Positions 12,201-33,175 of a stretch of 36,290 bases of DNA are shown here, one piece after another. The position numbers were made by a program, and so were the translations under genes. Under the pieces are notes generated by a model. That model did no database searches. It was not told the origin of the DNA and worked only from the letters and a program-made list of their open reading frames with translations. This DNA is from Kiritimatiellia bacterium (GTDB lineage: Bacteria; Verrucomicrobiota; Kiritimatiellia; CAIQIC01; Lenti-01). Position 1 is the stretch's first letter; each line of letters starts with the position of its first letter. The DNA is taken from assembly GCA_017527155.1 (NCBI GenBank), contig JAFXQI010000011.1, forward strand, positions 1 to 36,290, given 5' to 3'.

Positions 12201-13465
12201 CGGGAGAAGGGGAGTACGGGCGGTTCGTCCTGACGCACACGTCGCGGGATGCGTCCGGGACGGAGCTGGGACGGCTGGAGGCGGCGTTTGTCCGGGAATC
12301 GCCGGTGGCCACGCACCAGCGCGTGACGTTCGACGCGAACGGGGGGACGTGCGGGACGGCGGAAGAGACGTACGTGGTGGGGGAGGCGTACGGGGCACTG
12401 CCGACGCCGCAGTGGTCGGGTCATGCTTGGCTGGGTTGGTTCACGAAGAAGGAAGGGGGAGAGAGGGTCACGGAGGAGAGCGTGGTGCCGACCGTGGCGG
12501 AACGCACGTTGTACGCCCGCTGGACGGACCGGCAGACGGTCTTGTTCGACCCCAATGGCGGGAGCTGCAAGAAGGCGTCGGTGGCCTGCCCCATCGAGGG
12601 AACCTACTCGGGGTTCACGACCGCCTCCCGGGCGAACCACAAGTTCCTGGGCTGGTACACCGCCCGCGATGGCGGCAAGCGAGTCAAGAACGGCATGGCC
12701 GTGTCGGGCGGCGCGGAACGGACCCTCTACGCCCACTGGGAGGAACTGACCGAGCAGGTGGTGAAGTTCGACGCCAACGGCGGAACGTGCAAGAAGGCCT
12801 CGGTGACCTGCCTCTTCGGCGGAACCTACTCGGGGTTCACGACCGCCACTTGGGCGGGCCACTCGTTCCAGGGGTGGTACGACGACCCCGAAGGCGGAAA
12901 GCGCGTCAAGAACGGCATGGCCGTGACGGGCGGCGCGGAACGGACCCTCTACGCCCACTGGGAGGAACTGACCGAGCAGGTCGTGTGGTTCGACGCCAAC
13001 GGCGGGACGTGCAAGAAGGAGTCGGTGACGTGTCGATTCGGCGAGACCTACTCCGGGTTCACGACGGCCACTTGGGCGGGCCACTCGTTCCAGGGGTGGT
13101 ACGACGACCCCGAAGGCGGAAAGCGGGTCAAGAACGGCATGGCCGTGACGGGCGGCGCGGAGCGAATCTTGTACGCGCACTGGAAAGAGGCGGCCTCCGT
13201 CCTGTCCATCACGGGCTTCTCGCGCTCGCCCCGCCCCGTTTCCTCCGCCCGCGACGCCCAGGCGTCCGCAACGGAATACACGCTCCGTGCCGAAACCAGC
13301 GCCGGTGTCTCCTACGAAATCCAGTGGACTCCCGCCCTGGACGGCGGCTGGACGGTTGTGAAGCGCTGGACCGCCCCCGCCGAGGGCGAAACCGCCGTGC
13401 CGGTCGTCCTCCCCGCCGACTCGCCCGCCGGCTTCTTCCGTCTGGTCGAAACGGACACGGAATAG
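206..13465 (+). CDS. Giant secreted modular surface protein (BspA-type LRR, InlB_B, Calx-beta, CARDB, FGE-like domains)
   Basis: This 4,419-residue protein is probably an adhesin or surface-binding protein. ATG 206 has GGAGG seven bases upstream, and residues 1-29 look like a signal peptide. Approximate order: BspA-type leucine-rich repeats (75-455); an Ig-like module interrupted by a nidogen-like segment (479-752); a second LRR block (765-988); two InlB-type repeats (992-1138); four Calx-beta repeats (1140-1558); CARDB (1561-1680); NEW3-like segments; a carboxypeptidase-regulatory-like domain (about 1997-2090); a Gly/Asn linker (about 2195-2249); a unique Cys-containing region (about 2250-2675); a segment with LDYFVQRDVYGDDPF, typical of large bacterial extracellular proteins; three Ig-like modules (3112-3512); an FGE/SUMF1-like domain (3666-3922); four InlB-type repeats (4039-4329); and a tail ending FFRLVETDTE. 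No LPXTG motif or C-terminal membrane helix is visible, so the mode of attachment is unknown. Domain names are from motif reading; the exact function is unknown. Confidence 0.93.
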   Translation: MDIRIAKKCLEMLAAGAVLLGTVAERVYGLEWQYVVSDGKASVEGSWDEWYDDYSPAIPSSTSGAISVPSRLGGYPVDNIGEYAFSWCDRLTEVTIPNGVTNIGDCAFEYCTGLTNLTIPSGVKSIGYLAFDNCTGLTEITIPGNVENIGTYAFSCCGGLTSVILSNGVLSIGHRAFDYCDALTSVIIPDSVTNIGAGVFAGCLRLETIGVADGNTRYTSEDGVLFTTDKSLLVGFPGGRIGAYEIPGSVTSIWDSAFSGCINLSAVAIPGSVTSIGSYAFSGCSGLTEVTLPGSVTNIGSSAFSGCRGLTEVTIPESVTSIGSSAFSGCSGLTEVAIPGSVTSIGRYAFGGCSGLTEVTIPGSVTSIESAVFSGCKGLTEVMIPDSVVDIGSDAFSGCSTLTNVTIPDSVTNIGGYAFQNCGRLTAVVIPDSVAGIGTGAFAGCGGLASLEVPAAWWGTPKVLNAQVPAACTVTYRGIGPLVVATEVLPTGVLGVAYEAVLAASGGVAPYAWNVPGGNGTGDYRENERTTTFAQTGLARGWQADDECWDLALPFAFPYFGNTYTNAKINSNGTISFGPDDFSYNSRWEWDEYEGEDYWDIFPLNPVIAVLWKDLKTTGGNIYVECGEDAVTVRWAGSYYSSGDVNFSATLKADGTIVLSYGPGNAAGGTIGISAGDGKTVLYSSRSDNGDMANAPDIVFAMPQALPSGMELTSAGVLRGTPQKTGEFSFTAALTDAAGVKVEKELTLVVGETAMEGPREETVDGMTWRYVVTNGTAMVTGGPTNGPISIPAVLGGVPVTGIGDETFQGCGGLTAVEIPGSVTNIGWGAFRNCGGLEEVEIPDGVEEIGGGAFQGCEGVVSVSMGTGVRDIFEYAFAGCGALSGFDVAEGNGAFADVDGVLFSKDLKILVSYPGGKTGEYAVPEGVECIVSGAFYGCTELTRVELPDSVESVGMDAFMGCTFTLVVPGDWEGTSMLSDACAEGCEIVYRRVTEQRTVFHGNGGDPEEQVRTNAVGEAYGEMPTATWAGHAVFAGWWTEAAGGEQVTSNSTVTAEAERELWAQWNTKQVTTFKGNGGTPATQRTTNTIGAAYGWFPEVERDGWEFAGWWTKTNGGSRIRATNTVTTAAKRTLYARWTEIPKTLALELASDRVAEGAPGVRCLVRRTGPLASALEVAVASSRPGDVAVPETVTIPAGAKVGAFTAVPTDNDALDGERTAVLSVSAAGYEGADAELTVVDDEVPGLTLEADAASVREGGTLQVLVSRDLAGSEALTVNLAGLPASRLQGPSTVVIAAGERSALFEVSVPDDDVAQAETAYTLRASAAGHRPAALEFMVLDDDVPGVRLELYPESVSEGAGPNAVYATLTRTDTTNRLGQAIKVQLAASPSGAVVVPNTVTIPAYTLSVRFGITPVDNGTVDGEREVEITGQIAIASCGCGGQPSSGEAIRAVLTVVDNDVPALTLKAEPATMKEGLEEAGWLVLGHNSALESDLTVALSFDTAGEISIPATAVIPAGETVVRVPVRTLDDGAEDGAKLVSMYAEDPSGAFAGASTWLQVSDQNLPDLAVASVDAPASVVAKKAFTVRFAVTNSGFAACGRAVPYAVHVLRSQGAALGTNTLATTGTLPVGDGLVVGGTLSATVDVAAPELPGDVWVAVVLDPEGTVSELDNANNTGWSGAVGVAAAWTAAVAADAETVLPGGRIALAGTATLAEGGPAAGVDVDVYLLRDGMRRTLKAVTGEDGSFAADWEPSDGEAGHYGVGACYPGAGSAAVQDEFDVLGMRRIGSEPVTWDIALGDEAARTLTLRNASGTALTGLAAEFEGVPAECGLSWELPETLAGNGSVALKITATATGLTEGWEYAKFLVRVVSAEGAALEIPLYFHSQTQQAHLRAMPGSVATTMAVGHERYIDVTVANDGKGDSGTVTAAVPDVPWLKIAAGARADNLAPGESMTVTLLLCPEAEDGLALNAPLRGGTLAVNCENGRGCTVALEFTPVSEATGSVVVDVVDNNTYYLESAPHLAGATVKVNNPYTGAVVARGTTDADGTWRADGLSEGRYQLWVTAPKHETFAGELVVEPGRTARKTVFLQYQLVSVTWEVVPVDIEDSYQVKLVLEYETSVPAPVVKVTVPEELPVLAEGESWAFNIVAENVGLITAERVRVTMPSIPGHQFKLAKNDFSLAAKSAVEIPAIYRRTASGGTSGGEEGSGAGDGSGNSGGDGNGGGGNGGGGNGGGGGNGGGGGSEEGKDTVSEEEGEPPIDECWAWVHSSWEYICGPEKGREDYRVRIKYGPCEDKYIHRVIDDSFHQSTNRWAGWPGPSRTGDSGGGGTGGFGEPGLRLTEVNNGPCDPCVASILQAMQRAFEEGNWELYKMLREMLYAQIPFSACVDLVVNGTMTISPNIRDAVERASTRPELAWLLREHFESYGERRTPIHGIISGLSDGLSCGADVGAAVVAAGSAGTLSLPAFMTSNQAKRFIKGLEEFAKRFSTLWDTYQDAEELYDEVVSGGLDSDDELQAAVLTSCDAPVSRTARRDVRDMTVVCRYYDYAEDLVGNVGGNLWTNGYTLNQIIAVVTNGFASAAKSEDGFADEEEVAAGGDCGGVDDAHLRQWVREWNEAVAKFLAGEDEGTDAISISSMYYDIGRMQAGIEWVHGRGYTDMVDLLDHVLTDMRAIVDGTGKEVCASVTMELSQTVAMTREAFDGTLTMYNGNEETALTDLRFEPSILDEDGNECRDLFVAFANGTGGAMSGADVLEGGMTVAAGGTGSAVVRFVPERGAAPEEAKLYRFGGTVTYTDPFSGEAARIELTPVALTVNPSPYLHLDYFVQRDVYGDDPFTADAVEASLPAELAVLVRNTGAGEARNVTIDSVQPETVLNEKGLAVAFRLSDYSLDAMALNGATGHLGLEQVSLGNIPGGESRVAQWWLTASLQGHFTGMRATVVPVNSWNTPDTALVDPDAKVHMLVRSIVADGDGLPDFLTSEEPDLYGLADTIWTSAGDVLDVAPAGNVAVSGALAGGTVTVRMTATRGGWTYGWKAVPGAEQYEIAQVVRGDGSEVPLRNAWITDRVFRDGGDPKWETRLHIVDDCAQGEQTYTVALVAKAGDGPEVVSFGGVEAGMVLAASPNAVTVEFSADVDGATFGTEDLVLWYQGATVGDLSGLFISGAGKNWTISGVGNVCSADGRYELVVQTAGIVGVDGALGRNGRIVSWIVCGDTTGPAVLGVERVAGLAGESFRVALSESADVAAVAAGAVTLTRDGAAVALPGGLAWTDDGRGGLVLSGLASVTAADGAYVLTVMGNGLRDAAGNAGSGRASVSWTVDTVPPAAVAGLRIEPDLGESDADGVTCEAEVTVRGTLPADAASVTVLARYGSGAETVLAGPFAPAGAELACAVTLPWSGALELVVRCADAAGNASETEMGVYLDAIPATAAWDAVADGRVCELAVLRFTAPVEAADVTAARLSLLRDGVEVPLGGVEVTARAGGLAFEVTGLGSVCAGTGAYELCFNGEGVRKTSSGVPMGAGSISAGWKYESAKIASVEARQRYPWNGLVDIDYVLAGDDPEADSWVEIAVRDLGTGSLMPAWSLSGEGADGPVKAGTHRMVWDMAADRGNGFTADALSVELTARSGDATYLVVDMGGGAAAASWPMERLSGVPEGGWTDEYKTDKLVLRWIDAGTFTMGSPTNEPGRNLDEVQHEVTLTEGFWMGVFEVTQRQWELATGSNPAYYVGAARPVERVSYDMIRGNGAGAGWPASAAVDAGSFLGVLRAKTGLAFDLPTDAQWEYACRAGSLGTLNSDKEITVTEEASPAVAEVARYRFNNGLSAESDGRGGYGTAHTAVGSYQPNAWGLFDMHGNVAEWCLDWYDGIPTAGAVTNPVGAASGTNRVYRSGHWDGLPRYVRSADRGLRAPDSAETALGLRLAANGENAAGGMSEGAVSESFRADTRVGEGKVLSPAETEWATWDTAWEGAASVEVALTRPDGSTERLGGASSSWGAGRGSAEWIAGEGEYGRFVLTHTSRDASGTELGRLEAAFVRESPVATHQRVTFDANGGTCGTAEETYVVGEAYGALPTPQWSGHAWLGWFTKKEGGERVTEESVVPTVAERTLYARWTDRQTVLFDPNGGSCKKASVACPIEGTYSGFTTASRANHKFLGWYTARDGGKRVKNGMAVSGGAERTLYAHWEELTEQVVKFDANGGTCKKASVTCLFGGTYSGFTTATWAGHSFQGWYDDPEGGKRVKNGMAVTGGAERTLYAHWEELTEQVVWFDANGGTCKKESVTCRFGETYSGFTTATWAGHSFQGWYDDPEGGKRVKNGMAVTGGAERILYAHWKEAASVLSITGFSRSPRPVSSARDAQASATEYTLRAETSAGVSYEIQWTPALDGGWTVVKRWTAPAEGETAVPVVLPADSPAGFFRLVETDTE
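1010..1354 (+). repeat. Five tandem 69-bp units coding 23-residue leucine-rich repeats
   Basis: Units start at 1010, 1079, 1148, 1217 and 1286 and are nearly identical as DNA. The encoded pattern is IPGSVTSIGSYAFSGCSGL followed by TEVT, with small changes. The flanking LRR units (430-1009 and 1355-1570) follow the same 23-residue period but have diverged. The central block therefore looks recently duplicated or homogenised. Confidence 0.9.
6858..6925 (+). repeat. GGA-rich low-complexity tract coding an Asn-Gly linker
   Basis: Runs of GGAGGAGGAGGAAAC-like units encode repeated Asn-Gly4 and Asn-Gly5 blocks. This forms a flexible spacer between the regulatory-like beta domains upstream and the unique Cys-containing region downstream. 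Slippage in this tract would change linker length in frame when whole codons are gained or lost. Confidence 0.85.
12527..13192 (+). repeat. Three tandem 222-bp units coding InlB-type (Listeria-Bacteroides) repeats
   Basis: Units at 12527-12748, 12749-12970 and 12971-13192 each encode 74 residues. The typical features are FDANGG near the start, GW(Y) in the middle and the closing LYAHW. The last two units are almost identical as DNA, the first is more diverged, and a fourth, different copy lies just upstream (about 12320-12526). The high identity points to recent duplication. Confidence 0.9.
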
Positions 13466-21910: not shown

Positions 21911-24900
21911 TCAGGGGATGGTGACTTGGAGGCCGCCGAACCAGGAGGTGTTGGTGGGGAAGGGGAGGAGGGCGGTGGGGGCGCCGCGGCCGAGGGCGTT
22001 GGTGGTGAAGGATTGGGTGAGGTCGGTGGTCCAGAGGAGGGTGTAGAGGCGGTTGGTGGAGGCGGCGGGGATGGTGTAGGTGCTGGTGGCGGGGTTGGTG
22101 ATGACGATCTCCAGCGGGGTGTCGTTGGTGGGGTGGATGTCGGTGGCGTAGTGCCAGCCGTAGGTCTGGCCGGTGGCGGCGCTGGTGTTGGTTGCGGGGG
22201 TGGTGCCGGGGTAGCCGCGCTCTTCCATCCAGGTTTCGTACGGGGTGACGGAGGTGACGGAGACGGTGAGGGTGGCGTCGGCGCTGCCGGCGGTGTTGGC
22301 GGCGGTGAAGACGAAGGTGTAGGCGCCGGGGGCCAGGGGGGTGAAGGTGAAGAGGCCGTTTTCGAAGGTGTAGCCGGTGGCGGTGGTGGCGAGGGTGATT
22401 TCGGGTTCGGGGTCGCCTTCGAGGATGTGGGTCGCGGGCTCGAAGCTCCAGATGTCGCCCAGGACGAGGGCAGGGGCCGGGAGTTCGGACCAGACGGGGA
22501 GGACGGAGGCGGATTCGCCGGCGGTGAAGGTCAGGGTGTAGGCGAGGCTGGAGGTGGAGGTGACTTCGACGTCGCGGACGTGGGCGGCGTTGCGCATGTT
22601 GACGGTGTCCCAACCGGATTCGCTGTCCTTGGCGGAGGTGTTGATGCTGCCGGTGGTGACGGAAAGGGCGGCGGTGAGGGTACGGGTGCCGGAGTCGGTG
22701 GTGACGGCGAGGGTGTTGCCAGTGGTTTCTTCGGTCATGGGGGTCTGGCCGCGGAGGAGGAGGGTGGAGAGGTCGGGGGAGAGGCCGTTGCGGACGTACA
22801 TGGCCTTGCCGGAGGCGCTGTAGTTGATGGCGAAGGTGCCGCTGGCGGCGTCGGCAAGAGTGACGGTCTTGGTGAGGGAGCCGCTTGTGAAGGTGAGTTT
22901 GCCGCTGCCGGTGGTGACGGTGAACTTGGTGGCGGTCATGGGTTCGCCGCCGATGGATTTGTCTTTCATCGCGGCGCCGCGGATGGAGGTGGTGTCGCCG
23001 GTTTCGTGGGTCTCGTAGCCGGTTTCGGGCTGGGCGGGGAAGTTGCCGACCATCTGCCAGACGTTGGTGCCTTCCTTGAGCCAGGCGCCGGTCATGAGGC
23101 CGCCTTCGGCTTCGAAGATGGCCATGACGGCGTCGTTGCGGAGGATGTATTCGTGTTCGCCGTCGAGGTCGATGTCCTGGGAGTAGGCGCGGAGGCCGTC
23201 GGTGGCGGAGGCCCAGGCGTCGACTTCGGCGTAGACGGCGGCGAGGCGGGTGCGGGACTGGGCGCGCCAGGACATGGACATGAGGCCTTTGTCGCGGTCG
23301 GTGGCGGGGTACATGTATTCGCCGAAGGACCAGCGGGAGAGGTCGTTGTTGTCTTCGTCGTGGAAGGCGGTCTCGAAGGCGGAGGCGAAGATGGTGGCTT
23401 CGGCGAGGCGGCGGACGTCGGGGTTCGCGATGCCGGCGACGGCGGCCCAGGCGGCCTGGACGATGCCGTTGGTGGCGTCGCCGTAGGCGATGCCGGAGGG
23501 GAGGTTGGTGCCCTGGCGGACTTCGAAGACCTTGGCGGCGAGGGATTCGAGGTTGCGGGAGGCGTTGCCGCGGGAGGCGTCGCCGTAGTACCAGTTGTCG
23601 TAGTCGCCGTTGCAGGCGTGGTGGACCCAGTCCTGCATGCCCATGCCGTTGGTGGCGCACAGGTCGTTGTAGACGAGGGCGGAGGAGAGGGTTTCGTCGG
23701 CGAGGGCGCGGTCGAGGGTGACGACCTGGATCCAGGGGTGGTTGGCGATCCAGCGGAGGTTGAGGTCGTAGCCGTCGGCGTTTTCGGAGGAGGTGAAGTC
23801 TTCCCAGCGGTAGAAGATGGAGGAGATGGCGGCGTCGCCGGTGCGGGCGCGGCGGAGGAAGAGGTGGCGGAGGTCGCTGGAGAGGCCGGAGTCGGTGTTG
23901 GCGAAGCGGAATTGGTCGGCGGCGGAGGAGAGGACGAAGGCCTTGATTTCTTCGCCCCGGGCGGGGTCGGAGCCGTAGGCCCAGAAGCGCTGGATCTTGT
24001 AGGCGTCGTTGCCGAGGGCGGTCTGGCGGCCGAACCATTCGAGGAGGTGGGGGGTCTGGTCGATGACGGTGGCCTGGTAGCCCATGCGGGCGAGTTTGCC
24101 GAGGATGTCCCAGTCGGCGACGCGCTCGGAGAGCCAGAAGACGTTGGTGGAGACGACGGGGTTGCCGTTGCCGTAGATGGCGTCGAGGGTTTGGGCGGCG
24201 AGGGCGGCGTTGGCGGCGTTGAAGGCGTCGGGGTAGTATTTGAGGACGTGGTCGGAGTAGGTGGAGCCGAGGAGGGCGAAGGCGCCCTTGGCGATGCCCT
24301 GGCGGATGGCGTCGTTGAAGGCGGGGCCGGAGTACCAGGTGTTGGCGGTGCCGACGGCGGCCCACTCCATGGCCATGGCGAGGGTCGGGGTGATGTGGAG
24401 GTTCATGGGGCAGTTGGTGTAGATGTTGTGGATCTTGACGGGGCGCTGGTAGCCGGCGCCGGCGCCGTTGTCGACGAGGCCGTGCATGGTGTGGGCGGGC
24501 TCGACGGCCTGGTTGCCGTGGGCGACGATGGCGAGTTTGGCGTGGGCGTTTGCGTTGTTCCAGCCGTAGTTGGGGTTGCCCTTGGTGACGCAGGTGGTGA
24601 ATTTGCCGTTCTGGGCGATGTTGTTGTAGTCGTTCCAGTAGTCGGAGCAGAGCCAGTCGTCGCCGATGGTGTCGGTGAAGTCGTTGAGGCCGCCCTTGTC
24701 GCCGGAGCCGCCGTCGTCGGCGGTGAAGTCGCGGGTGGTGTAGACCTGGAAGAGGAGGTTGTCGCCCATGCCGTTCCAGCCGGCGTCGACGAGGACTTTG
24801 CGGTCGATGGACCAGGCGACGGTGTCGAGTTCGGAGTTGAAGAAGGCGCCGTGGAAGCCGGAGGTGCGGTCGAAGTCCTCGGAGGTGCCTTTCTGGACGT

Positions 24901-27900
24901 AGAGGCAGCCGTTCTGGGAGTCGTAGACGCCGGAGACGGCGTTCCACTTCATGTCGGACTTGCAGTTGACGTCGTCGGGGAGCCAGGTGATGCCGTTGCC
25001 GTAGTTGCCGAAGTTCATGGCGACGTAGATGTTGAGGGCGGAGTCTTCGGCGAAGGCCTTGAGGTCGTCGAAGTCGACGCGGAAGTAGAGGGTGCCGTCG
25101 CCGCCCTGGGAGGGGTCGCCGCCGTCGCGGAAGTAGAAGGCGACCATGTCGCGGGAGGAGTCGAAGCCGTCGCCGAAGCGGTAGATGTCGGCGGAGTTGC
25201 CGCCCTGGTTGTAGTCGTCGAGGGCGACGAGGTCGTCGAGGGTCCACTGGGTGTATTCGGCGAAGTATTGTCTGCCGTTGACTTCGCCGATGATGTCGCC
25301 GGCGCCGATGGTGATGGAGCCGGGGTTGTCGCCGGGGGAGGAGCCGTTGTCGGAGGAGCGGGGGTTGGTGCCGCCGAGGAGTTCGGCGGCGTTGTCGTAG
25401 GGGACAACTTCGCCGCCCTGGATGTAGGTGTCGGCATCGGGGTTGCCGGCGGGGCCGTGGGTGGGGTCGTCGGTGAACTGGCCGGTGCGGAAGTCATACG
25501 TACCGTTGTTGAGGGGGTCGAGGGAGTAGTTGACTTCCCAGCCGTCGGGGAGGCCGTCGTGGTCGGTATCGGTGCAGAGGGGGTCGGTCTCGGTGATGAG
25601 GAGGCGGGGCCAGCCGTTGGTCTGCTTGGTGCCGGAGGCGACGGGGTCGGTGACGTTGAAGGCGGCGAAGAGGGCGTCGTAGTTTATGGCGCGGGAGGTG
25701 TAGGGTTTTTGCGCGAGGGTGGAGGCGGAGTTTTCGCTGCTGAGGGTGTCGATGCCGATGCCGAGGGCGGCGTAGTCGGCGGGGGTGATGGGGACGAGGG
25801 TGCCGTCCTGGTGGAGGAGGGCCATGTCGGTCCAGCCGTTGGCGTTCTTGTCTTCGCCGTAGCCGTCGGAGAGGCCGTCGGCGTCGGAGTCGGCGACGGA
25901 GGGGGAGGTTTCTTCCCAGGTTTCGCCGGTCATCTTGCCGTCGGGCCAGGCGCGGTCCCACCAGGGATCCCAGTCGGCGGGGATGATGGCGCCGTCGCCG
26001 TCGGTCCAGCCGTTGCGGTTGGCGTCTTCGACGCCGTCGGGGATGCCGTCGAAGTCGGAGTCGGGGTTGCGGGGGTCGGTGACGGAGCCTTTGACGATGG
26101 CGGTGCGGTCGCCGCCTTCGGTGGAGGAGGTGACGCCGGGGACTTTGCCGGAGTTGCTTTCGCAGGAGTTGAAGAAGGGGGGATCGCGGTCCCAGATCCA
26201 GTTGGGCCAGCCGTCGCCGTTGGTGTCGGCGGAGGCGTCGGTGCCGGTGGAGGGGGAGCGGTAGCCGAGTTCGAGGGCGTCGGGGAGGCCGTCGCCGTCG
26301 GAGTCGGGGCAGGCGGGGTCGGACTTGCCGGTGGACCACCAGTCGAAGACTTCGTCCTGGGTCCAGTATTCGGACTGTTTTTCGGGGAGGGGGATGGAAT
26401 CGCTCTCGCGGAGGTTGGCGATGCCGTCGTCGTCCCAGTCGACGTCGTTGGTGTCGGCGACGCGGACGAGCTGGCGGAAGCGGACGGTGGCGGAGCGGCC
26501 GGCGGAGTTGGTGGGGACGGAGTATTTGCGGGCGGTGTTGTCGGCGGTGACGCGGGCCTCGAAGCGGTAGGCGCCGGCGTTGGTGACCTGCCAGGCGAAG
26601 GTCCAGGTCATGGTGGTGCCGTTGCTGGCGACGTCGGTGAGGCGGAGGCAGTCGTTGGTGGGCCAGAGGGAGGGGGTGGCGGAGATGGCGGCGGGGTAGT
26701 TGGTGGGGGAGAGGAAGGCGATGTCGAGGCGGGTGGCTTCGGCGTCGGTGAGCACGACGATGGGGGTCTCGCGCAGGGCGCGGTTGGTGGCGGCGGCGGT
26801 GGAGTCTTCCATGGTGATGACCCACTTGACGCCGTCGGAGTCGGTCTCGGGCGGGGTGGTGACGATGCAGGTGGGCAGGAGGGCGCCCTTGTGGCGGACG
26901 AGGCGGGTGGCGGACTTGGAGTAGGTGCCGTTGGCGTTGGCGTTGTCGAAGTCGACGGTGAGGGCGTAGCGCCAGGTGTCGATGCCGTTGTAGACGTTGG
27001 GCATGCGGAAGGTGAGGGTGTTGAGGCCGCTGCCGTCGCCGCCCCAGTCCCATTCGTGGCGCATGTCGAGCTCGGAGGCGGGCTGGAGGTCGCCGCGGAC
27101 GGTGGAGCCGTCGTTGGTGGAGTTGACGTAGACTTTGAACTTGGAGAAGATTTCGTCGTCGGTCAGGTCCTGGGCCATGCGGGCGGTGTATTTGACGCGG
27201 ATGTCCCAGCCGGCTTCGACGAGGGTGCCGTCGGCGTCGGGCCAGTCGATGAAGAAGCGTTCTTCGGGGCCGCGGGTGTTGGCGGTCTTGAGGAGTTCGG
27301 TGACGTGGAGGGCGGCGGGGTCGTCGAGGGCGGGGTCGGAGGTGGACCAGTCTTCGACGGGGGCGGAGGAGACTTCGCAGAGGCGGACGCGGATGGTGGC
27401 GGTGCCGGCGTGGGGGATCTGGGAGTAGTTGAAGCGCCAGATCTTGGTGGTGGTGGTGTCCTGCGCCATTTCGCGGGTCCAGGGGGAGAGCTGGACGGCG
27501 GGGGCCCATTCGACGACGCCGTTGGTGGTGAAGCCGTTGCCGACGCCGTCGTTGGAGGGGTCGGAGTCGGTGATGTGGACCCAGACGTGGTCGACGGTGT
27601 TGTCGGTCTTGATGACCATGCCGTATTCGCTGTCGCCGAAGGTGGGGGTGTCCTCGGAGGGGTAGAGGAAGAAGCCTTCGGGGGTGTGGCGGTCGAGGTA
27701 GAAGGTCTGTCGGAAGGTGTTGGCGACGGGGGCGCCGTCGTTGCGGTTGAGGAAGAGGCGGGCGGTGAGGAGGTGGTAGCCGTCCTCGAAGCCGGTGGTC
27801 CAGGAGTTGTAGTCGAGGTGCTTGTGGTAGGACTGGGTGGTGAAGTCGAGGCCGGGGATGGTCCAGAGGCTCATCATGACTTTCTTGTTGGCGATGGCTT

Positions 27901-30900
27901 CGCCGTTGCCGGGCCAGATGGTGCCCCAGCCGTTGTCGCCGTAGCCCATTTCGCGGAAGGCGGAAATCTTGTAGCGGAGGGTCGCGCCGGAGGGGATGGA
28001 GCCGGAGGGGAGGTCGAAGCGCCACCAGGAGCCGGTGTCGCTGTCGGCTTTCCAGGTGCCTTCGACGGCCTTGGTGGCGGGGTTGGCGGGGACGCCGCCG
28101 CCGCCTTCGGGCCAATGGACGCCGTCGGTGGTGTAGTAGAGGTAGGCGCGGGCGCCCTGTTCCTTGGAGGTCTTGGCCCAGACGGTCGCGGAGGTGCCGT
28201 CGCGGGTGAATTGGTCGGCGATGCCGGAGCCGGAGGGGGTCTCGGTGACGACGGCGGTGTAGGCGAGGTTGTCGAAGTAGAGCTGGCGGTTGGCGTTGTC
28301 GTCGGTGGCGTTCATGTACGCCTTGAAGGAGGCGATGGTCGCGGAGGTCGTGACGGTGGCGCCGGCGAACGTGCCGCCGTCGCGGGTGGTGCCGCTGACG
28401 GTGTAGCCGCTGGCGGTGCGGGTGAGGGTAACGTTGAAGGCGGAGGTGCCGTAGGCAGTGCTCCAGGTTCCGGAGAGGTTGCCTGCGCCGTAGTAGGTGA
28501 CGGTGGCGGACCCGCCCATCTGGACACCGAAGACGGCGTTGCCGGAGGCATCCATGAACTCGATGCCCTTGTATTTGCTGCCATTGTTGCTGTCCCAGAG
28601 CATCCCGACATCGACGCTGGCGGCGGTCAGGGTGGCGCCGTGGGAGAGGGGACGGACGAGGATGGCGTTGGCGGAGTCGTCGTTGTTGGCGTAGAGGCCG
28701 AACGCCTGGTTGCCGGAGAAGCCGGTGATGCCGCAGCCGGAGGCTTCGGTGCCGGCGAAGTAGCCGGCGTTGCCGTTGCTGTTGTCCTGCCAGTTGCCGA
28801 AGCCGTCGGCGGCGCCGTCGCGGCCGTTGACGGAGGCCTTGAGGGTGTAGGTGTTGGTGGTGGTGACGGGCTTGCCGGTGTCGACGGGGACGGTCTCGGT
28901 CTCGGCGGTGGGGCTGTGCCAGACGAAGGACGGGGCTTCGATGGAGGCGCCTTGGTAGGCGTCGGCCGGGTCGTAGACGTTGGTTTCGGCGGGCTTGATT
29001 TCGTAGGTGGTGGCGCCCTGGGTGCCGATCTTGCAGTAGGCGGTGTCGCCGGCGGCGAATTTTTCGCTCCAGATGCGGCGGGTGAACCACTTGGTGGTGT
29101 CTTCGAAGCCGAGCCAGAAGTCTTCGGAGACGCCGGGCGGGGCGTCGCGCCAGTCGCCGTTCTGGTCGTTGGAGATGCCGTTGCCGAAGTCCATGCCGCC
29201 GTCGAGGCGGAGCTTGAGGGTCTCGGCGGAGCCGTCGGCCTTGACGGCGAGGGTGACGTTGGTGCCGCCGGTCACGCGCGGGATGGCGATGGTGTAGGAG
29301 AAGTCGGTGTTGTTGGTGTCGGCGACGCCGTAGGGGTTGAAGTCGGGGTCGCCGTCGACGCCGTCCTTGCGGACGACCATGACGGGGTCGACGACGTGGC
29401 CGTCTTCGAGGATGGTGATGACGCGGGAATCGGGCGCGATGACGCGGTCGTCGGAGTTGACGAAGCAGTCGGGGTAGGGGGAGGGGTAGAGGCCGGAGGG
29501 GTCGGGGTTCTTCGGGGCCCAGATGGCGTAGGAGTTGGGGGGGATTTCGACGTAGCCGGAGGCGAGTTCGGAGCCGTAGACGTAGGGGGCCTCGGACCAG
29601 TTGTCGTCGTGGCGGTGGGGCATGTACATGTCGCTGGCGTAGTCGTAGAGGTAGAAGTCGTCGCTGCCGAAGTCGCCGCCCGTGGTGGAGTCCTGCCAGA
29701 AGTCCCAGCCGGAGTTCAGCTGGAAGAGCATCGTCGCCCAGCTGCCTTCGCCGCCGCGCTGCCAGGCGACGAAGTTGCCCTGCGACCACTTGCCCCACTG
29801 GCCGCCGCGCGCGAAGTTCTCGTGGGCGTGGAGAAGGGTGGGGATCTGCTTCTGGCCCCACTGGCCGAGGAAGTCCGTCTGCGCCCAGCGCGGGAACGCG
29901 CCGCCGGAGCCGGAAAGCGTCGCGGCGTGGTTGTTTCCGTCGGAATAGACGAGGCCGAGGCCGCGGCGCATGAAGTACATGGCGTGGTGGAGGGGCTTGC
30001 GGTCCACGAAGTCGTTGTCGTGGCTCTGCGCGTGCATGACGCCGCAGTCGGGGCCGAGCTCGCTGCCCGCGTACTCGCCGTCGAAGCCTTCCAGCTGGTT
30101 GGCGCTGAAGCGCCAGTTGAGTTCGTTGCGGAGGCGGTCGTCCACGAGGCGCATGCCGGTGGCGACGTAGGGGCCCTGGGCGGGGGGCGCGCCGAGGTGC
30201 TCGCCGAAGGCCATCAGGTCGTCGCGGGGGGCGTCGATGTTGAACACGCTGTCGCGGTGGTTGCCCCAGTCCTGGAAGCCGCGGGTCATGTTGAACTGCC
30301 ACTGGGCCTGGCCCATGTAGCCGTAGTTCGAGCCGTCCTTGTCGTCGCCCCAGCTGGCGCCGTAGAAGTCGTAGGGGACGTGCTTGACGGCGTCGAGGCG
30401 GAGGCCGTCGACCTTGGTGCGGTCCACGAGCCAGCGGACGGCGCGGTTGAGGTAGTCGTCCACCTGCTCCTTGTAGAAGTTGGGGAAGTCCTCGATGAGC
30501 TTCATCGAGACGCCGCCTCGGGCGTCGTGCTCGTCGAACCAGGCGGCGTTGGCGGAGATGAGGGCGGCGGTGGCCGGGTCGTCGGGGTTCCAGGAGACGT
30601 TCTCGAAGCCGGTGTAGAGGTTGACGCCGTTGTCGCCGTCGGTGTTCTGGAGGGCGCCGTCGCCCTGGCGGTAGTCGTCGTTCGTCTTGCCGGGGTAGGG
30701 CATGCGGTCGAAGAGCTTCCAGGTGTCCTCCTTGTGGTAGGCGTAGCGGACGATGTAGGGCTTGAGGTGCCAGCCGCCCTCGGTGGGGCCGAAATTCGCG
30801 TTGTAGGGGCCGTTGCCGCCGTCGTCGTAGTAGTTCTCGTGGGCGATGTCGAGCAGGTCCGAGAGGCCCAGGAACATCACCTGCCACTCGTCGTCCCAGC

Positions 30901-31417
30901 TGCGGACGTTGTCCCACTTGCGGTAGAAGCCGTCGGACGTGGTGCGGACGTGGAAATCCTCGGGGCACATGCCGGGGTAGACGTCGGTGGGGGTGGACTC
31001 GTTGTAGCCGGGGATGTCGTAGGACCGGTGGTTCATGACGTTGTCGAAGTAGACGCGCATGCCGAAGCGGTGGCACATGGCGATGAGGTTGTGCAGGTCG
31101 GCCTCGGTGCCGTAGCGGGTGCTCCAGGTGCCGCGCAGGTCGCTGTTGCCGAGGTCGAAGGGGTCGTTGAGGTCGTAGCCCACGCTCATCCCGCCGTTGG
31201 CCTTGGTCGGGGGCGGGACCCAGAGGGCGGTGTAGCCGGCCTCGGCGATTTCGGGCAGGCGCGCCGCGATCTCGTTGTGGCTCTGGTTGAACACCTGGAG
31301 GATGGCCTCCGCGCGGGCGGCGGCCGGGGAAAGGAATGTGCAGGCGGCCGCGAGGAGGGCGCCCCCGAAGGCGATGCCGCGGCGGTTCCAGGCGAAGAGA
31401 CTGGCTGTCGTTGTCAT
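21911..31417 (-). CDS. Giant secreted amylase: N-terminal GH13 domain and a distant GH57/GH119-like domain
   Basis: The protein has 3,168 residues. A signal peptide (about 1-36, ending AAARA) is followed by a GH13 domain (about 37-640) with all four regions: DNVMNH (125-130), GLRLDAVKH with nucleophile Asp342, acid/base Glu406 in FGEHLG, and HDND with Asp467. Residues about 640-1690 hold beta-rich, carbohydrate-binding-like modules. Four acidic DSDGDGLPD-type calcium-binding (thrombospondin type 3) repeats lie at about 1690-1970. A second enzyme-like domain (about 2290-2700) has HGNQAVE (His2300), LLGSTYSDHVL (His2390), FWLSER (Glu2431) and RWEDF (Asp2540), which resemble the GH57/GH119 conserved regions. 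An Ig-like segment and a tail domain close the protein. It should hydrolyse starch or glycogen outside the cell. GH13 is clear; the second domain is a motif-level inference. AAAGGA eight bases before ATG 31417 supports the start. Confidence 0.92.
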   Translation of the reverse strand: MTTTASLFAWNRRGIAFGGALLAAACTFLSPAAARAEAILQVFNQSHNEIAARLPEIAEAGYTALWVPPPTKANGGMSVGYDLNDPFDLGNSDLRGTWSTRYGTEADLHNLIAMCHRFGMRVYFDNVMNHRSYDIPGYNESTPTDVYPGMCPEDFHVRTTSDGFYRKWDNVRSWDDEWQVMFLGLSDLLDIAHENYYDDGGNGPYNANFGPTEGGWHLKPYIVRYAYHKEDTWKLFDRMPYPGKTNDDYRQGDGALQNTDGDNGVNLYTGFENVSWNPDDPATAALISANAAWFDEHDARGGVSMKLIEDFPNFYKEQVDDYLNRAVRWLVDRTKVDGLRLDAVKHVPYDFYGASWGDDKDGSNYGYMGQAQWQFNMTRGFQDWGNHRDSVFNIDAPRDDLMAFGEHLGAPPAQGPYVATGMRLVDDRLRNELNWRFSANQLEGFDGEYAGSELGPDCGVMHAQSHDNDFVDRKPLHHAMYFMRRGLGLVYSDGNNHAATLSGSGGAFPRWAQTDFLGQWGQKQIPTLLHAHENFARGGQWGKWSQGNFVAWQRGGEGSWATMLFQLNSGWDFWQDSTTGGDFGSDDFYLYDYASDMYMPHRHDDNWSEAPYVYGSELASGYVEIPPNSYAIWAPKNPDPSGLYPSPYPDCFVNSDDRVIAPDSRVITILEDGHVVDPVMVVRKDGVDGDPDFNPYGVADTNNTDFSYTIAIPRVTGGTNVTLAVKADGSAETLKLRLDGGMDFGNGISNDQNGDWRDAPPGVSEDFWLGFEDTTKWFTRRIWSEKFAAGDTAYCKIGTQGATTYEIKPAETNVYDPADAYQGASIEAPSFVWHSPTAETETVPVDTGKPVTTTNTYTLKASVNGRDGAADGFGNWQDNSNGNAGYFAGTEASGCGITGFSGNQAFGLYANNDDSANAILVRPLSHGATLTAASVDVGMLWDSNNGSKYKGIEFMDASGNAVFGVQMGGSATVTYYGAGNLSGTWSTAYGTSAFNVTLTRTASGYTVSGTTRDGGTFAGATVTTSATIASFKAYMNATDDNANRQLYFDNLAYTAVVTETPSGSGIADQFTRDGTSATVWAKTSKEQGARAYLYYTTDGVHWPEGGGGVPANPATKAVEGTWKADSDTGSWWRFDLPSGSIPSGATLRYKISAFREMGYGDNGWGTIWPGNGEAIANKKVMMSLWTIPGLDFTTQSYHKHLDYNSWTTGFEDGYHLLTARLFLNRNDGAPVANTFRQTFYLDRHTPEGFFLYPSEDTPTFGDSEYGMVIKTDNTVDHVWVHITDSDPSNDGVGNGFTTNGVVEWAPAVQLSPWTREMAQDTTTTKIWRFNYSQIPHAGTATIRVRLCEVSSAPVEDWSTSDPALDDPAALHVTELLKTANTRGPEERFFIDWPDADGTLVEAGWDIRVKYTARMAQDLTDDEIFSKFKVYVNSTNDGSTVRGDLQPASELDMRHEWDWGGDGSGLNTLTFRMPNVYNGIDTWRYALTVDFDNANANGTYSKSATRLVRHKGALLPTCIVTTPPETDSDGVKWVITMEDSTAAATNRALRETPIVVLTDAEATRLDIAFLSPTNYPAAISATPSLWPTNDCLRLTDVASNGTTMTWTFAWQVTNAGAYRFEARVTADNTARKYSVPTNSAGRSATVRFRQLVRVADTNDVDWDDDGIANLRESDSIPLPEKQSEYWTQDEVFDWWSTGKSDPACPDSDGDGLPDALELGYRSPSTGTDASADTNGDGWPNWIWDRDPPFFNSCESNSGKVPGVTSSTEGGDRTAIVKGSVTDPRNPDSDFDGIPDGVEDANRNGWTDGDGAIIPADWDPWWDRAWPDGKMTGETWEETSPSVADSDADGLSDGYGEDKNANGWTDMALLHQDGTLVPITPADYAALGIGIDTLSSENSASTLAQKPYTSRAINYDALFAAFNVTDPVASGTKQTNGWPRLLITETDPLCTDTDHDGLPDGWEVNYSLDPLNNGTYDFRTGQFTDDPTHGPAGNPDADTYIQGGEVVPYDNAAELLGGTNPRSSDNGSSPGDNPGSITIGAGDIIGEVNGRQYFAEYTQWTLDDLVALDDYNQGGNSADIYRFGDGFDSSRDMVAFYFRDGGDPSQGGDGTLYFRVDFDDLKAFAEDSALNIYVAMNFGNYGNGITWLPDDVNCKSDMKWNAVSGVYDSQNGCLYVQKGTSEDFDRTSGFHGAFFNSELDTVAWSIDRKVLVDAGWNGMGDNLLFQVYTTRDFTADDGGSGDKGGLNDFTDTIGDDWLCSDYWNDYNNIAQNGKFTTCVTKGNPNYGWNNANAHAKLAIVAHGNQAVEPAHTMHGLVDNGAGAGYQRPVKIHNIYTNCPMNLHITPTLAMAMEWAAVGTANTWYSGPAFNDAIRQGIAKGAFALLGSTYSDHVLKYYPDAFNAANAALAAQTLDAIYGNGNPVVSTNVFWLSERVADWDILGKLARMGYQATVIDQTPHLLEWFGRQTALGNDAYKIQRFWAYGSDPARGEEIKAFVLSSAADQFRFANTDSGLSSDLRHLFLRRARTGDAAISSIFYRWEDFTSSENADGYDLNLRWIANHPWIQVVTLDRALADETLSSALVYNDLCATNGMGMQDWVHHACNGDYDNWYYGDASRGNASRNLESLAAKVFEVRQGTNLPSGIAYGDATNGIVQAAWAAVAGIANPDVRRLAEATIFASAFETAFHDEDNNDLSRWSFGEYMYPATDRDKGLMSMSWRAQSRTRLAAVYAEVDAWASATDGLRAYSQDIDLDGEHEYILRNDAVMAIFEAEGGLMTGAWLKEGTNVWQMVGNFPAQPETGYETHETGDTTSIRGAAMKDKSIGGEPMTATKFTVTTGSGKLTFTSGSLTKTVTLADAASGTFAINYSASGKAMYVRNGLSPDLSTLLLRGQTPMTEETTGNTLAVTTDSGTRTLTAALSVTTGSINTSAKDSESGWDTVNMRNAAHVRDVEVTSTSSLAYTLTFTAGESASVLPVWSELPAPALVLGDIWSFEPATHILEGDPEPEITLATTATGYTFENGLFTFTPLAPGAYTFVFTAANTAGSADATLTVSVTSVTPYETWMEERGYPGTTPATNTSAATGQTYGWHYATDIHPTNDTPLEIVITNPATSTYTIPAASTNRLYTLLWTTDLTQSFTTNALGRGAPTALLPFPTNTSWFGGLQVTIP

Positions 31418-31521: not shown

Positions 31522-31620
31522 GCCCCGTTTATGGGCGACGGAGCGCGGCGTTGGGCGACGTCCACCGCGCGCCCGGTGCAGTGCCCGGAAACCACCGGCC
31601 GCCGGACGGGGAAGCGGGAG

Positions 31621-31722
31621 TTTTCCAATGATTGGAAAACTTTTTTCCAATGGTTGGAAAATTTGGGCCGATTTTTCCAATGATTGGAAAAAATTTTCGG
31701 CAGTTTTCCAATGATTGGAAAA
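31621..31722. promoter_or_regulatory. Array of four 19-bp palindromes (TTTTCCAA-N3-TTGGAAAA)
   Basis: Copies lie at 31621-31639, 31643-31661, 31673-31691 and 31704-31722. Each has perfect 8-bp arms TTTTCCAA/TTGGAAAA. The centre is TGA in copies 1, 3 and 4 and TGG in copy 2. Start-to-start spacing is 22, 30 and 31 bp, close to two or three helical turns, so bound dimers would sit on roughly the same DNA face. The AT-rich array stands out from its GC-rich surroundings. It lies about 100 bp upstream of the amylase promoter and about 480 bp before pheA. It looks like an operator cluster for a dimeric protein; neither the protein nor the regulated gene can be read from the window. Confidence 0.85.
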
Positions 31723-31823
31723 ATATTTCGGGGCGGGGCGCGGAAGGGGAATGGGCGCGCCCGGAAGGCGGGGCACCGGATGGGACTGCGTCAAGAAAGG
31801 GTGTGGCCTCGATCCGTTGTCCA

Positions 31824-31905
31824 GTCCACAGCGGACGCGCAGAAGCGCGTCCCTCCCCGAGGAGAGCGCAACGGGAGGGGCGCGCTTCCGCGCGACCTTG
31901 TGGAC
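31824..31905. repeat. 82-base nested inverted repeat, REP- or MITE-like palindromic element
   Basis: The outer arms are GTCCACA (31824-31830) and TGTGGAC (31899-31905). Inside them, GGACGCGCAGAAGCGCGTCC and the rest of the left arm match the right arm at about 22 of 25 positions in inverted orientation. The left arm is itself a hairpin (GGACGCG/CGCGTCC), and the right arm contains CGCG-CTTC-CGCG. The whole can fold as one long stem or as a branched structure. It codes for nothing I can see. Confidence 0.75.
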
Positions 31906-31909
31906 GGGA

Positions 31910-31924
31910 AACTTCCGGGAAGTT
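31910..31924. promoter_or_regulatory. 15-bp perfect palindrome, possible operator
   Basis: AACTTCCGGGAAGTT has 7-bp arms around a central G. It begins four bases after the 82-base inverted repeat and is followed by an A-rich stretch. It could be a protein-binding site or part of the adjoining repeat element. No second copy is visible in the window. Confidence 0.4.
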
Positions 31925-31944
31925 AAAGAAAAGCTTAAAACCGC

Positions 31945-31981
31945 TCCCTGGCCGCGCCCCCGCGGGAGGGACGTCCAGGGA
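31945..31981. repeat. Second nested GC-rich inverted repeat
   Basis: The outer arms TCCCTGG (31945-31951) and CCAGGGA (31975-31981) enclose an inner hairpin CCGCG-CCCC-CGCGG (31952-31965) and the sequence GGGAGGGACG, which echoes the GTCCCTCCC part of the 82-base element upstream. It may be a partial copy of the same family. The rest of 31982-32200, up to pheA, shows no further structure that I can support. Confidence 0.45.
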
Positions 31982-32200
31982 AGGGCGGGAAACAGTTTTG
32001 AGATTACGGAAAAACAATGGATTTTGGCGGACTTTTCCACATGCTGATGCCCATGAAAACAAGGGGCGGACGGGGACGGCCGGTGCGCTGCACGTCCAGC
32101 CAGAGGGCGGCGGTGGGCGGAGCGGACGACGGCGGGGGAATCCAGGGGGCGGCGAGGAATGGCTTGCATGGGGAGGGGGAGGTGGTGCAGGGTAGGGGAC

Positions 32201-33175
32201 ATGAACGAGAACTCGATGGACAACGGACAAACGGATGCGGCACGGCGCGAGGACGCGGCACGGACGCGGACGGAGGAGCGGCTGGCGCGGGAACGACGGT
32301 ACGATGCCGCGGGCGCGGTGCCGCCGTGCGGGCTGCCGCCGGCGGCGGACGGGGGGCTGGCGGAGGTGCGGCGGATTTCGTACGGGGGGACGGCGGGGTC
32401 CTTCTCGGAGATGGCGGCGAAGCGGATGTTCCCGGCGGCGGAGCGGGTGGCGCGCCGGACGTTCCCGGAGGCCTGCGACGAGCTGGAGGCCGGAGGATGC
32501 GGGGCGGCGGTGCTGCCGCTGCGGAACACGACGGGCGGGGCGGTGGACACGGTGTACCGGCTGCTGGAACGGGGGCTGTCCATCGCGCGCTTCACCGACC
32601 TCTACGTGGAGCACTGCCTCGCGGCGCTGCCGGGGGCGCGGACGGAGGACGTCCGCACGGTGGTGAGCCATCCGCAGGCGTTCGCACAGTGCTCGAAGGC
32701 CATCGGGCAGCACGGCTGGCGGATGGAACCGGCCGACAACACGGCGTTCGCGCCGGGCATCGTCCGGGCGGCCGGTGACCCGTCGAAAGCCGCGATCTGC
32801 TCGCGGGAGGCGGCGGCGCTGAACGGGCTGGCGGTGCTGGCGCCGAACATCTGCGACACGCCGCGGAGCGACATCACGCGGTTCGTGGCGGTGACGAGGG
32901 GACTGATCGTGACGCCGGACGCATCGCGGCTGTCGGTGCTGGTCCATCTGGCCCACCGCACGGGGGCGCTGGCGGACGTGCTGGACGTGCTGGCGGACCG
33001 GGGACTGAACCTGTCGGCGATCGCGGCCCGGCCGGTGCCGGAGAAGCCGTGGGAGTACTCCTTCTTCCTCGACATCGAGGCCCCGGCGATGGCGCCGTCC
33101 GCGCTGGCGGCCCTGCGCCAGTTCGGGGAGGAGCTGCCGATGGTGCGGGTGGTGGGCTGGTACGGGGAGGGGTAG
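32201..33175 (+). CDS. pheA: Prephenate dehydratase with C-terminal ACT domain
   Basis: The protein has 324 residues and converts prephenate to phenylpyruvate in phenylalanine synthesis. The dehydratase domain (about 57-232) has TAGSFSEMAA near 64, NTTGGAV (109-115), SHPQAFAQC (156-164) and the catalytic ITRF (225-228). The ACT domain (about 243-318) is the usual phenylalanine sensor; its GAL motif is kept (255-257), but the usual ESRP reads AARP (275-278). There is no chorismate mutase domain; the first 55 residues are a charged, Ala/Arg-rich extension of unknown role. I chose ATG 32201, just after GGTAGGGGAC; an upstream in-frame start at 32159 and an internal ATG at 32216 are possible. No gene for another step of the pathway is next to it. 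Confidence 0.95.
   Translation: MNENSMDNGQTDAARREDAARTRTEERLARERRYDAAGAVPPCGLPPAADGGLAEVRRISYGGTAGSFSEMAAKRMFPAAERVARRTFPEACDELEAGGCGAAVLPLRNTTGGAVDTVYRLLERGLSIARFTDLYVEHCLAALPGARTEDVRTVVSHPQAFAQCSKAIGQHGWRMEPADNTAFAPGIVRAAGDPSKAAICSREAAALNGLAVLAPNICDTPRSDITRFVAVTRGLIVTPDASRLSVLVHLAHRTGALADVLDVLADRGLNLSAIAARPVPEKPWEYSFFLDIEAPAMAPSALAALRQFGEELPMVRVVGWYGEG

What the first reader, a model, noticed from the sequence alone, without database searches (positions are those of the whole stretch)
31621..31722. Four helically phased copies of a 19-bp palindrome in a divergent intergenic region
TTTTCCAATGATTGGAAAA or its TGG-centred variant occurs four times with perfect 8-bp arms and spacings of 22, 30 and 31 bp. 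The array is AT-rich inside very GC-rich DNA, and no other full copy is visible elsewhere in the window. Perfect symmetry and phasing suggest cooperative binding of a dimeric protein, either as an operator of the giant amylase or as a wider chromosomal site such as a domain-organising or replication-linked element. I cannot tie it to a known regulator.
Basis: seen in the sequence. Interest (0 to 1): 0.7.

Follow-up and report, generated by a model that had tools for sequence, protein, structure and literature searches.

The report
Genome-wide phased palindrome arrays in Kiritimatiellota
The four short palindromes are one of many similar arrays scattered through this uncultured bacterium's chromosome, spaced so that a still unknown DNA-binding protein would sit on one face of the helix; the same arrays occur patchily across its class, so this looks like a chromosome-wide feature and not the switch of one gene.

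Summary
In detail: four exact TTTTCCAA-N3-TTGGAAAA palindromes at 31621, 31643, 31673 and 31704 (chance expectation 0.01). It is not a local operator. The genome (3.23 Mb) holds 356 exact copies (control pattern 0), nearly all in arrays of 2-7 with steps of 22, 30 or 31 bp. All site distances share a 10.4-bp period (R = 0.85). Across class Kiritimatiellia, 76 of 346 genomes have the motif, very patchily; in other families sites stand 31 or 32 bp apart with unrelated spacers (49 of 49 distinct in one genome). The 7-bp arms are almost invariant; between two species arms differ at 2/320 positions, spacers at 12/106. Mismatches are almost never compensatory, so the DNA sequence, not a hairpin, appears to be recognised. 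Arrays lie next to unrelated genes, avoid divergent promoter regions, and sometimes sit in-frame inside enzymes. In the sister species the orthologous amylase and pheA both lack an array. Best reading: cooperative same-face binding sites of an unidentified dimeric protein with a chromosome-wide, probably architectural, role; arrays can be gained, lost and inserted like REP/RPE repeats. The protein was not found; Y1 transposase and Fis/NtrC-type (HTH_8) counts do not track the sites.

The parts
31621..31639 (+). Site 1, centre TGA (A-type)
   Evidence: Exact palindrome arms
31643..31661 (+). Site 2, centre TGG (B-type), 22 bp after site 1
   Evidence: genome-wide a 22-bp step nearly always ends at a TGG-centred site (82 of 88)
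31673..31691 (+). Site 3, centre TGA, 30 bp after site 2
   Evidence: genome-wide a 30-bp step nearly always starts at TGG (52 of 54)
31704..31722 (+). Site 4, centre TGA, 31 bp after site 3
   Evidence: 31-bp steps link TGA/CGA-type sites with spacers resembling A[AT]TTTTCGSCRK
31621..31722 (+). Whole array, spacing word A-22-B-30-A-31-A, one of 66 clusters (59 with two or more sites) found in a 0.99-Mb sample of the genome
   Evidence: + is the polarity given by G in the centre
21911..31417 (-). Giant secreted alpha-amylase gene (3168 aa), left neighbour; the array is 203 bp upstream of its start
   Evidence: Pfam Alpha-amylase E 9e-16; ortholog in G001 lacks the array
32201..33175 (+). Prephenate dehydratase (PheA-like) gene, right neighbour; ortholog in G001 (86% aa) has no array
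   Evidence: Pfam PDT
31530..32156 (.). Stretch not shared with G001 that contains the array (synteny breakpoint between the amylase block and the pheA block)

Best explanation
The array is a cluster of cooperative binding sites for a sequence-specific dimeric DNA-binding protein that marks many places along the chromosome. Each dimer reads TTTCCAA-N3-TTGGAAA (7-3-7). Neighbouring dimers sit 2 or 3 helical turns apart on the same face and touch or bridge each other, giving a local nucleoprotein complex with a chromosome-wide role (nucleoid folding, bridging, anchoring or insulation) and not control of one regulon. Arrays are gained, lost and change unit number over time and can land inside genes. 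Shown: sequence, copy number, phasing, arm conservation, lack of a regulon, placement away from 5' ends, patchiness. Inferred: that a protein binds, that it is a dimer, that binding is cooperative, that the role is architectural. The protein is unidentified.
For: 356 exact copies vs 0 control. Own-genome site distances peak at a 10.4-bp period, R 0.85. In G019, with allowed steps of 20-50 bp, every listed pair is exactly 31 bp apart and all 49 spacers differ; in G041 the core motif alternates 31/32 bp, i.e. 31.5 = 3 x 10.5. Inner 7 bp of the arms nearly invariant over 288 sites; only 1 of 69 mismatched sites has a compensatory change, at the free outermost base. G000 vs G001: arms 2/320 changed, spacers 12/106, flanks 16/480; arms vs spacers p = 2e-6, arms vs flanks p = 0.013. 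8 of 9 arrays with both flanks found are kept in G001. Flanking genes are unrelated (AlaRS, GyrA, EF-G, S1, MreC, AcrB). Divergent regions avoided, 5 of 52 vs 12.9 expected; median distance 174 bp to 5' ends vs 75 bp to 3' ends. No paired sites in IMG/VR viral contigs.
Against: No binding protein identified. Counts vary from 0 to over 1000 per genome, even inside genera, odd for an essential chromosome-organising site. Arrays occur inside ORFs and are absent at the window's orthologous loci, which looks like a mobile repeat. In the own genus the spacers keep a family consensus, so part of the uniform spacing there could be copying. The substitution test rests on four alignable arrays, and some flanks are coding. 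Intergenic positions are not conserved between genera beyond chance (p = 0.23). No regular spacing along the chromosome was shown.
Confidence: 0.5

Rival explanations
1. A mobile, essentially selfish palindromic repeat (REP/BIME- or RPE-like) that spreads into intergenic regions and in-frame into genes; phased sites serve its own mobilising protein.
For: Very patchy copy number across and within genera; arrays in surface loops of TatD (own genome), OppB and TrpF, as RPEs do in Rickettsia (PMC2229807); absent at the orthologous amylase and pheA loci and at L171/L232; unit-number turnover.
Against: Y1 transposase (RAYT family) counts do not correlate with site counts (Spearman 0.19, p 0.17); no conserved GTAG/CGTC-like tag beside the arrays (REP/RPE tags in PMC3733652); arms are kept while spacers diverge; exact 31-bp steps with unrelated spacers are not explained by copying alone.
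Confidence: 0.28
2. Operators or enhancers of a global transcription regulator (for example an NtrC/Fis-type enhancer-binding protein) acting on neighbouring promoters.
For: 7-3-7 symmetry and 31-32-bp spacing resemble NtrC and Fis upstream sites (from memory); the window array lies 203 bp upstream of the amylase start.
Against: Convergent placement in 13 of 52 arrays, depletion of divergent regions and of the first 75 bp before starts; neighbours share no function; no excess of sigma-54-like promoters near arrays; HTH_8 is in all 56 genomes whether or not they have sites; amylase keeps its near-upstream DNA without the array in G001.
Confidence: 0.1
3. Bidirectional transcription terminators or RNA hairpin elements at gene ends.
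For: The array folds as RNA far better than shuffles (z -6.3); arrays lie closer to 3' ends than 5' ends; in relatives several pairs just fill convergent gaps.
Against: Mismatches are almost never compensatory and the arm sequence is fixed across the class; helical phasing is not needed for hairpins; arrays also lie inside open reading frames and in some tandem gaps only 20-30 bp before called starts; the terminator scan does not flag the array.
Confidence: 0.08

Closest known systems
REP/BIME elements (GTAG- or CGTC-tagged palindromes, PMC3733652)
   Same: Short palindromes in hundreds of copies, mostly intergenic, clustered, variable between strains
   Different: No GTAG/CGTC-type tag, palindrome identical across families of a class, fixed 2- and 3-turn spacing, no correlation with Y1 transposases
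Rickettsia palindromic elements (RPE)
   Same: Palindromic insertions that stay in-frame inside conserved proteins (PMC2229807)
   Different: RPEs are single 105-146-bp units forming one long stem-loop; here arrays of 19-bp sites with phased spacing, mostly intergenic
Noc (NBS), SlmA and MatP (matS) chromosome-organising sites (from memory)
   Same: Palindromic sites at tens to hundreds of chromosomal places not tied to a regulon
   Different: Those are mostly single sites of other sequence; here multi-site helically phased arrays, and the protein is unknown
NtrC enhancer sites and Fis upstream sites (from memory)
   Same: 7-3-7 symmetry (NtrC) and spacing of about 3 turns on one face
   Different: Different half-site, not tied to promoters, far more sites than such regulators usually have

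Membership tests
REP/BIME | GTAG/CGTC (or similar) tetranucleotide tag at one end of the palindrome | tested here: not met
   Flanks of 54 arrays show no fixed tetranucleotide, under 0.75 bits per position
REP/BIME | Association with a REP-associated tyrosine transposase (Y1_Tnp) | tested here: not met
   Y1 counts vs site counts over 56 genomes: Spearman 0.19, p 0.17; adjacency of sites to each Y1 gene was not examined
RPE-type coding palindromes | In-frame insertion in conserved protein genes | tested here: met
   TatD (L164), TrpF (L100, L130), OppB (L152, L084, L123)
RPE-type coding palindromes | One 105-146-bp element folding into a long stem-loop | tested here: not met
   Unit is a 19-bp site repeated at 22/30/31 bp with variable spacers
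Nucleoid/chromosome-organising sites | Recurrent sequence-specific sites across the chromosome independent of a regulon | tested here: met
Nucleoid/chromosome-organising sites | Bound by an identified protein that affects nucleoid structure or segregation | not testable with these tools
   No candidate found; needs pull-down and Hi-C
NtrC/Fis-type enhancer | Linked to sigma-54 or other promoters | tested here: not met
   Sigma-54-like scores not higher near arrays than in control intergenic regions; arrays avoid 5' ends
NtrC/Fis-type enhancer | Cognate HTH_8 protein distributed with the sites | tested here: inconclusive
   HTH_8 in 56 of 56 genomes, rho 0.23, p 0.09
Intrinsic terminator | Stem maintained by compensatory change, GC-rich stem plus U tract | tested here: not met
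   1 compensatory pair among 69 mismatched sites; array not flagged by the scan

The most novel reading that the evidence does not exclude
A class-wide chromosome-organising system in Kiritimatiellota: an unknown dimeric protein polymerises or bridges on phased palindrome arrays, and its site arrays multiply and insert even into coding sequences, a cross between a nucleoid-protein site and a mobile palindromic repeat.
Probability: 0.3. Interest if true: 0.8.

Novelty: new variant of a known kind. Interest (0 to 1): 0.62.

Why it matters
It points to an unknown, probably abundant DNA-binding protein in a widespread, poorly cultured bacterial class, with a recognition site and spacing rule precise enough to find it by DNA affinity. 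It also offers a natural case where the same DNA signal is kept both between genes and inside enzymes, which would let selection on DNA sites be separated from selection on proteins. No paper describing such arrays was found in the library searched, though that library lacks most subscription journals.

Tried and rejected
Amylase operator: rejected, the array is absent upstream of the 98% identical amylase N-terminus in G001. Regulon: Pfam scans of 39 genes with an array at their 5' side and 53 with one at their 3' side show no common function. RAYT/REP: Y1 counts uncorrelated and no tag. Fis/NtrC-type binder: HTH_8 present everywhere, no sigma-54 enrichment. RNA hairpin or terminator: no compensatory changes, not flagged. 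Phage origin: no paired sites in IMG/VR. Conserved intergenic neighbourhoods between genera: no excess over permutation, 9 vs 6.8, p 0.23. A first gene caller was fooled by antisense ORFs and was retrained on amino-acid composition. Exact-sequence literature search gave only unrelated papers.

Full report
OBSERVATION. The window holds four exact TTTTCCAA-N3-TTGGAAAA sites at 31621, 31643, 31673 and 31704, steps 22, 30 and 31 bp, and no further copy within three mismatches; shuffles give 0.01. They lie between the divergent giant amylase (start 31417, minus) and a prephenate dehydratase gene (called start 32201, plus).

GENOME SCALE. The genome (3.23 Mb, 114 contigs) has 356 exact copies, with 0 for the reversed control pattern. 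In a 344-kb first sample, 63 of 65 CCAANNNTTGG occurrences carried array-type TTT/AAA flanks. In a 0.99-Mb sample (partly chosen around arrays), 66 clusters hold 279 sites, mostly 4 to 6 each. Adjacent steps are almost only 21/22, 29/30 and 31 bp, and all within-array distances share a period of 10.4 bp with R = 0.85. There is a grammar: a TGA- or CGA-centred site (A) is followed by 22 bp to a TGG-centred site (B) or by 31 bp to another A; B is followed by 30 bp to A (52 of 54 such steps start at TGG). The window array, A-22-B-30-A-31-A, follows it.

TAXON AND DISTRIBUTION. The sister genome G001 matches the rumen MAG RUG11196 by contig numbers and lengths. I therefore place the window in class Kiritimatiellia by inference. 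Of 346 class genomes, 76 have exact sites, in 31 of 121 genera. With the shorter core TTCCAANNNTTGGAA counts reach 1339 (G017) and 853 (G020), while most of the window's own family has none. Paired sites were not found in IMG/VR.

SPACING IS GENERAL. With steps from 20 to 50 bp allowed, every listed pair in G019 and G026 is exactly 31 bp apart and G022 uses 31 or 32; in G019 all 49 spacers are different. G041 alternates 31 and 32 bp over its longer arrays, i.e. 31.5 = 3 x 10.5. For 31-bp steps, spacers are AT-rich at the edges and GC-rich in the middle in all lineages checked; the 32-bp spacers do not show this clearly. Unrelated spacers of exactly fixed length are hard to explain by copying and point to same-face protein contacts.

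WHAT IS RECOGNISED. Over 288 sites in the own sample the inner seven bases of each arm are nearly invariant, the outermost base is free, and only one of 69 mismatched sites has a compensatory change, at that free base. Most sites were seeded on intact inner arms, which biases this somewhat. Between G000 and G001, four alignable arrays show 2/320 arm changes, 2/60 centre, 12/106 spacer and 16/480 flank; arms vs spacers p = 2e-6, arms vs flanks p = 0.013. The RNA folds well (z -6.3), as any palindrome array must, but the pattern of change argues for sequence recognition in DNA.

CONTEXT. Of 52 multi-site arrays between two called genes, 34 are tandem, 13 convergent and 5 divergent; the length-weighted null gives 28.8, 10.3 and 12.9. 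Median distance is 75 bp to 3' ends and 174 bp to 5' ends, null about 160 for both. Neighbours are functionally mixed, including alanyl-tRNA synthetase, gyrase A, EF-G, S1, MreC and AcrB. Sigma-54-like promoters are not enriched. This is not the pattern of an operator set.

DYNAMICS. Eight of nine own arrays with both flanks found in G001 are kept there, but unit number differs in some, one is missing (L171 vs L232), and the window array is missing: in G001 the amylase (98% identical N-terminus, upstream DNA 96% identical to about window 31530) lies next to a gene that reads as pdxA (my reading of the sequence), and pheA lies elsewhere, both without sites. The array thus lies in a 0.6-kb stretch at a synteny breakpoint. 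In L044 vs L231, spacers changed strongly in DNA otherwise about 99% identical, which suggests exchange between array units.

IN-GENE ARRAYS. Arrays also occur in-frame inside genes, read as FSNDWK, FPMIGK or FQSLEK depending on frame. TatD of the own genome has about 11 extra residues at the array compared with solved TatD-family enzymes; a relative's TrpF has its array at an alignment break after the VQxHG motif, and a second genus has one at the same place. OppB-like permeases of three genera carry arrays in the same loop. Rickettsia palindromic elements are the known precedent for in-frame palindromes (PMC2229807). Whether shared positions mean common descent or repeated insertion is open.

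MECHANISM. The favoured model is cooperative same-face binding of a dimer to arrays scattered along the chromosome, with an architectural role, on sites that can spread. Binding, dimer state, cooperativity and architecture are inferred; the protein is unknown. The main rival is a purely selfish repeat. RAYT-type Y1 transposases and HTH_8 proteins do not track the sites.

KNOWN SYSTEMS. REPs carry GTAG or CGTC tags (PMC3733652), absent here. Noc, SlmA, MatP, NtrC and Fis comparisons rest on memory. No description of these arrays was found in the open-access library.

Noticed in passing
window 31830-31899: A GC-rich inverted repeat (CAGAAGCGCGTCCCTCCC ... GGGAGGGGCGCGCTTCCGCGC) next to the array belongs to a second, REP-like dispersed family; related 18-mers occur in 20-30 places of the 0.99-Mb sample.
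   Followed up: no
window 206-13465 (+): An open reading frame of 4419 aa, with good coding score, besides the 3168-aa amylase: two giant proteins in one 36-kb window.
   Followed up: no
window 21911-31417 vs G003:C17, G001:C185, G001:C221: The amylase is 89% identical (aa) to a copy in another genus (G003), while G001 has one copy at 64% and an N-terminal piece at 98%; this suggests transfer or paralogy.
   Followed up: partly
L140:11231-13743 vs L230:17695: A gene plus array is tandemly duplicated in the own genome and single in G001, with arrays of different unit number.
   Followed up: partly
L164, L100, L130, L152, L084, L123: Palindrome arrays translated in-frame inside TatD, TrpF and OppB-like proteins, at homologous loops in different genera for TrpF and OppB.
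   Followed up: partly
G041, G054, G020 contig ends: Many sites lie within 150 bp of contig ends, so the arrays or adjacent repeats probably break short-read assemblies.
   Followed up: no
L097 (JAEEIJ010000041.1): A MAG record labelled Bacteroidales carries the own genus' 22/30/31 array grammar and a near-identical GyrA N-terminus next to an array; the record is probably mislabelled.
   Followed up: no
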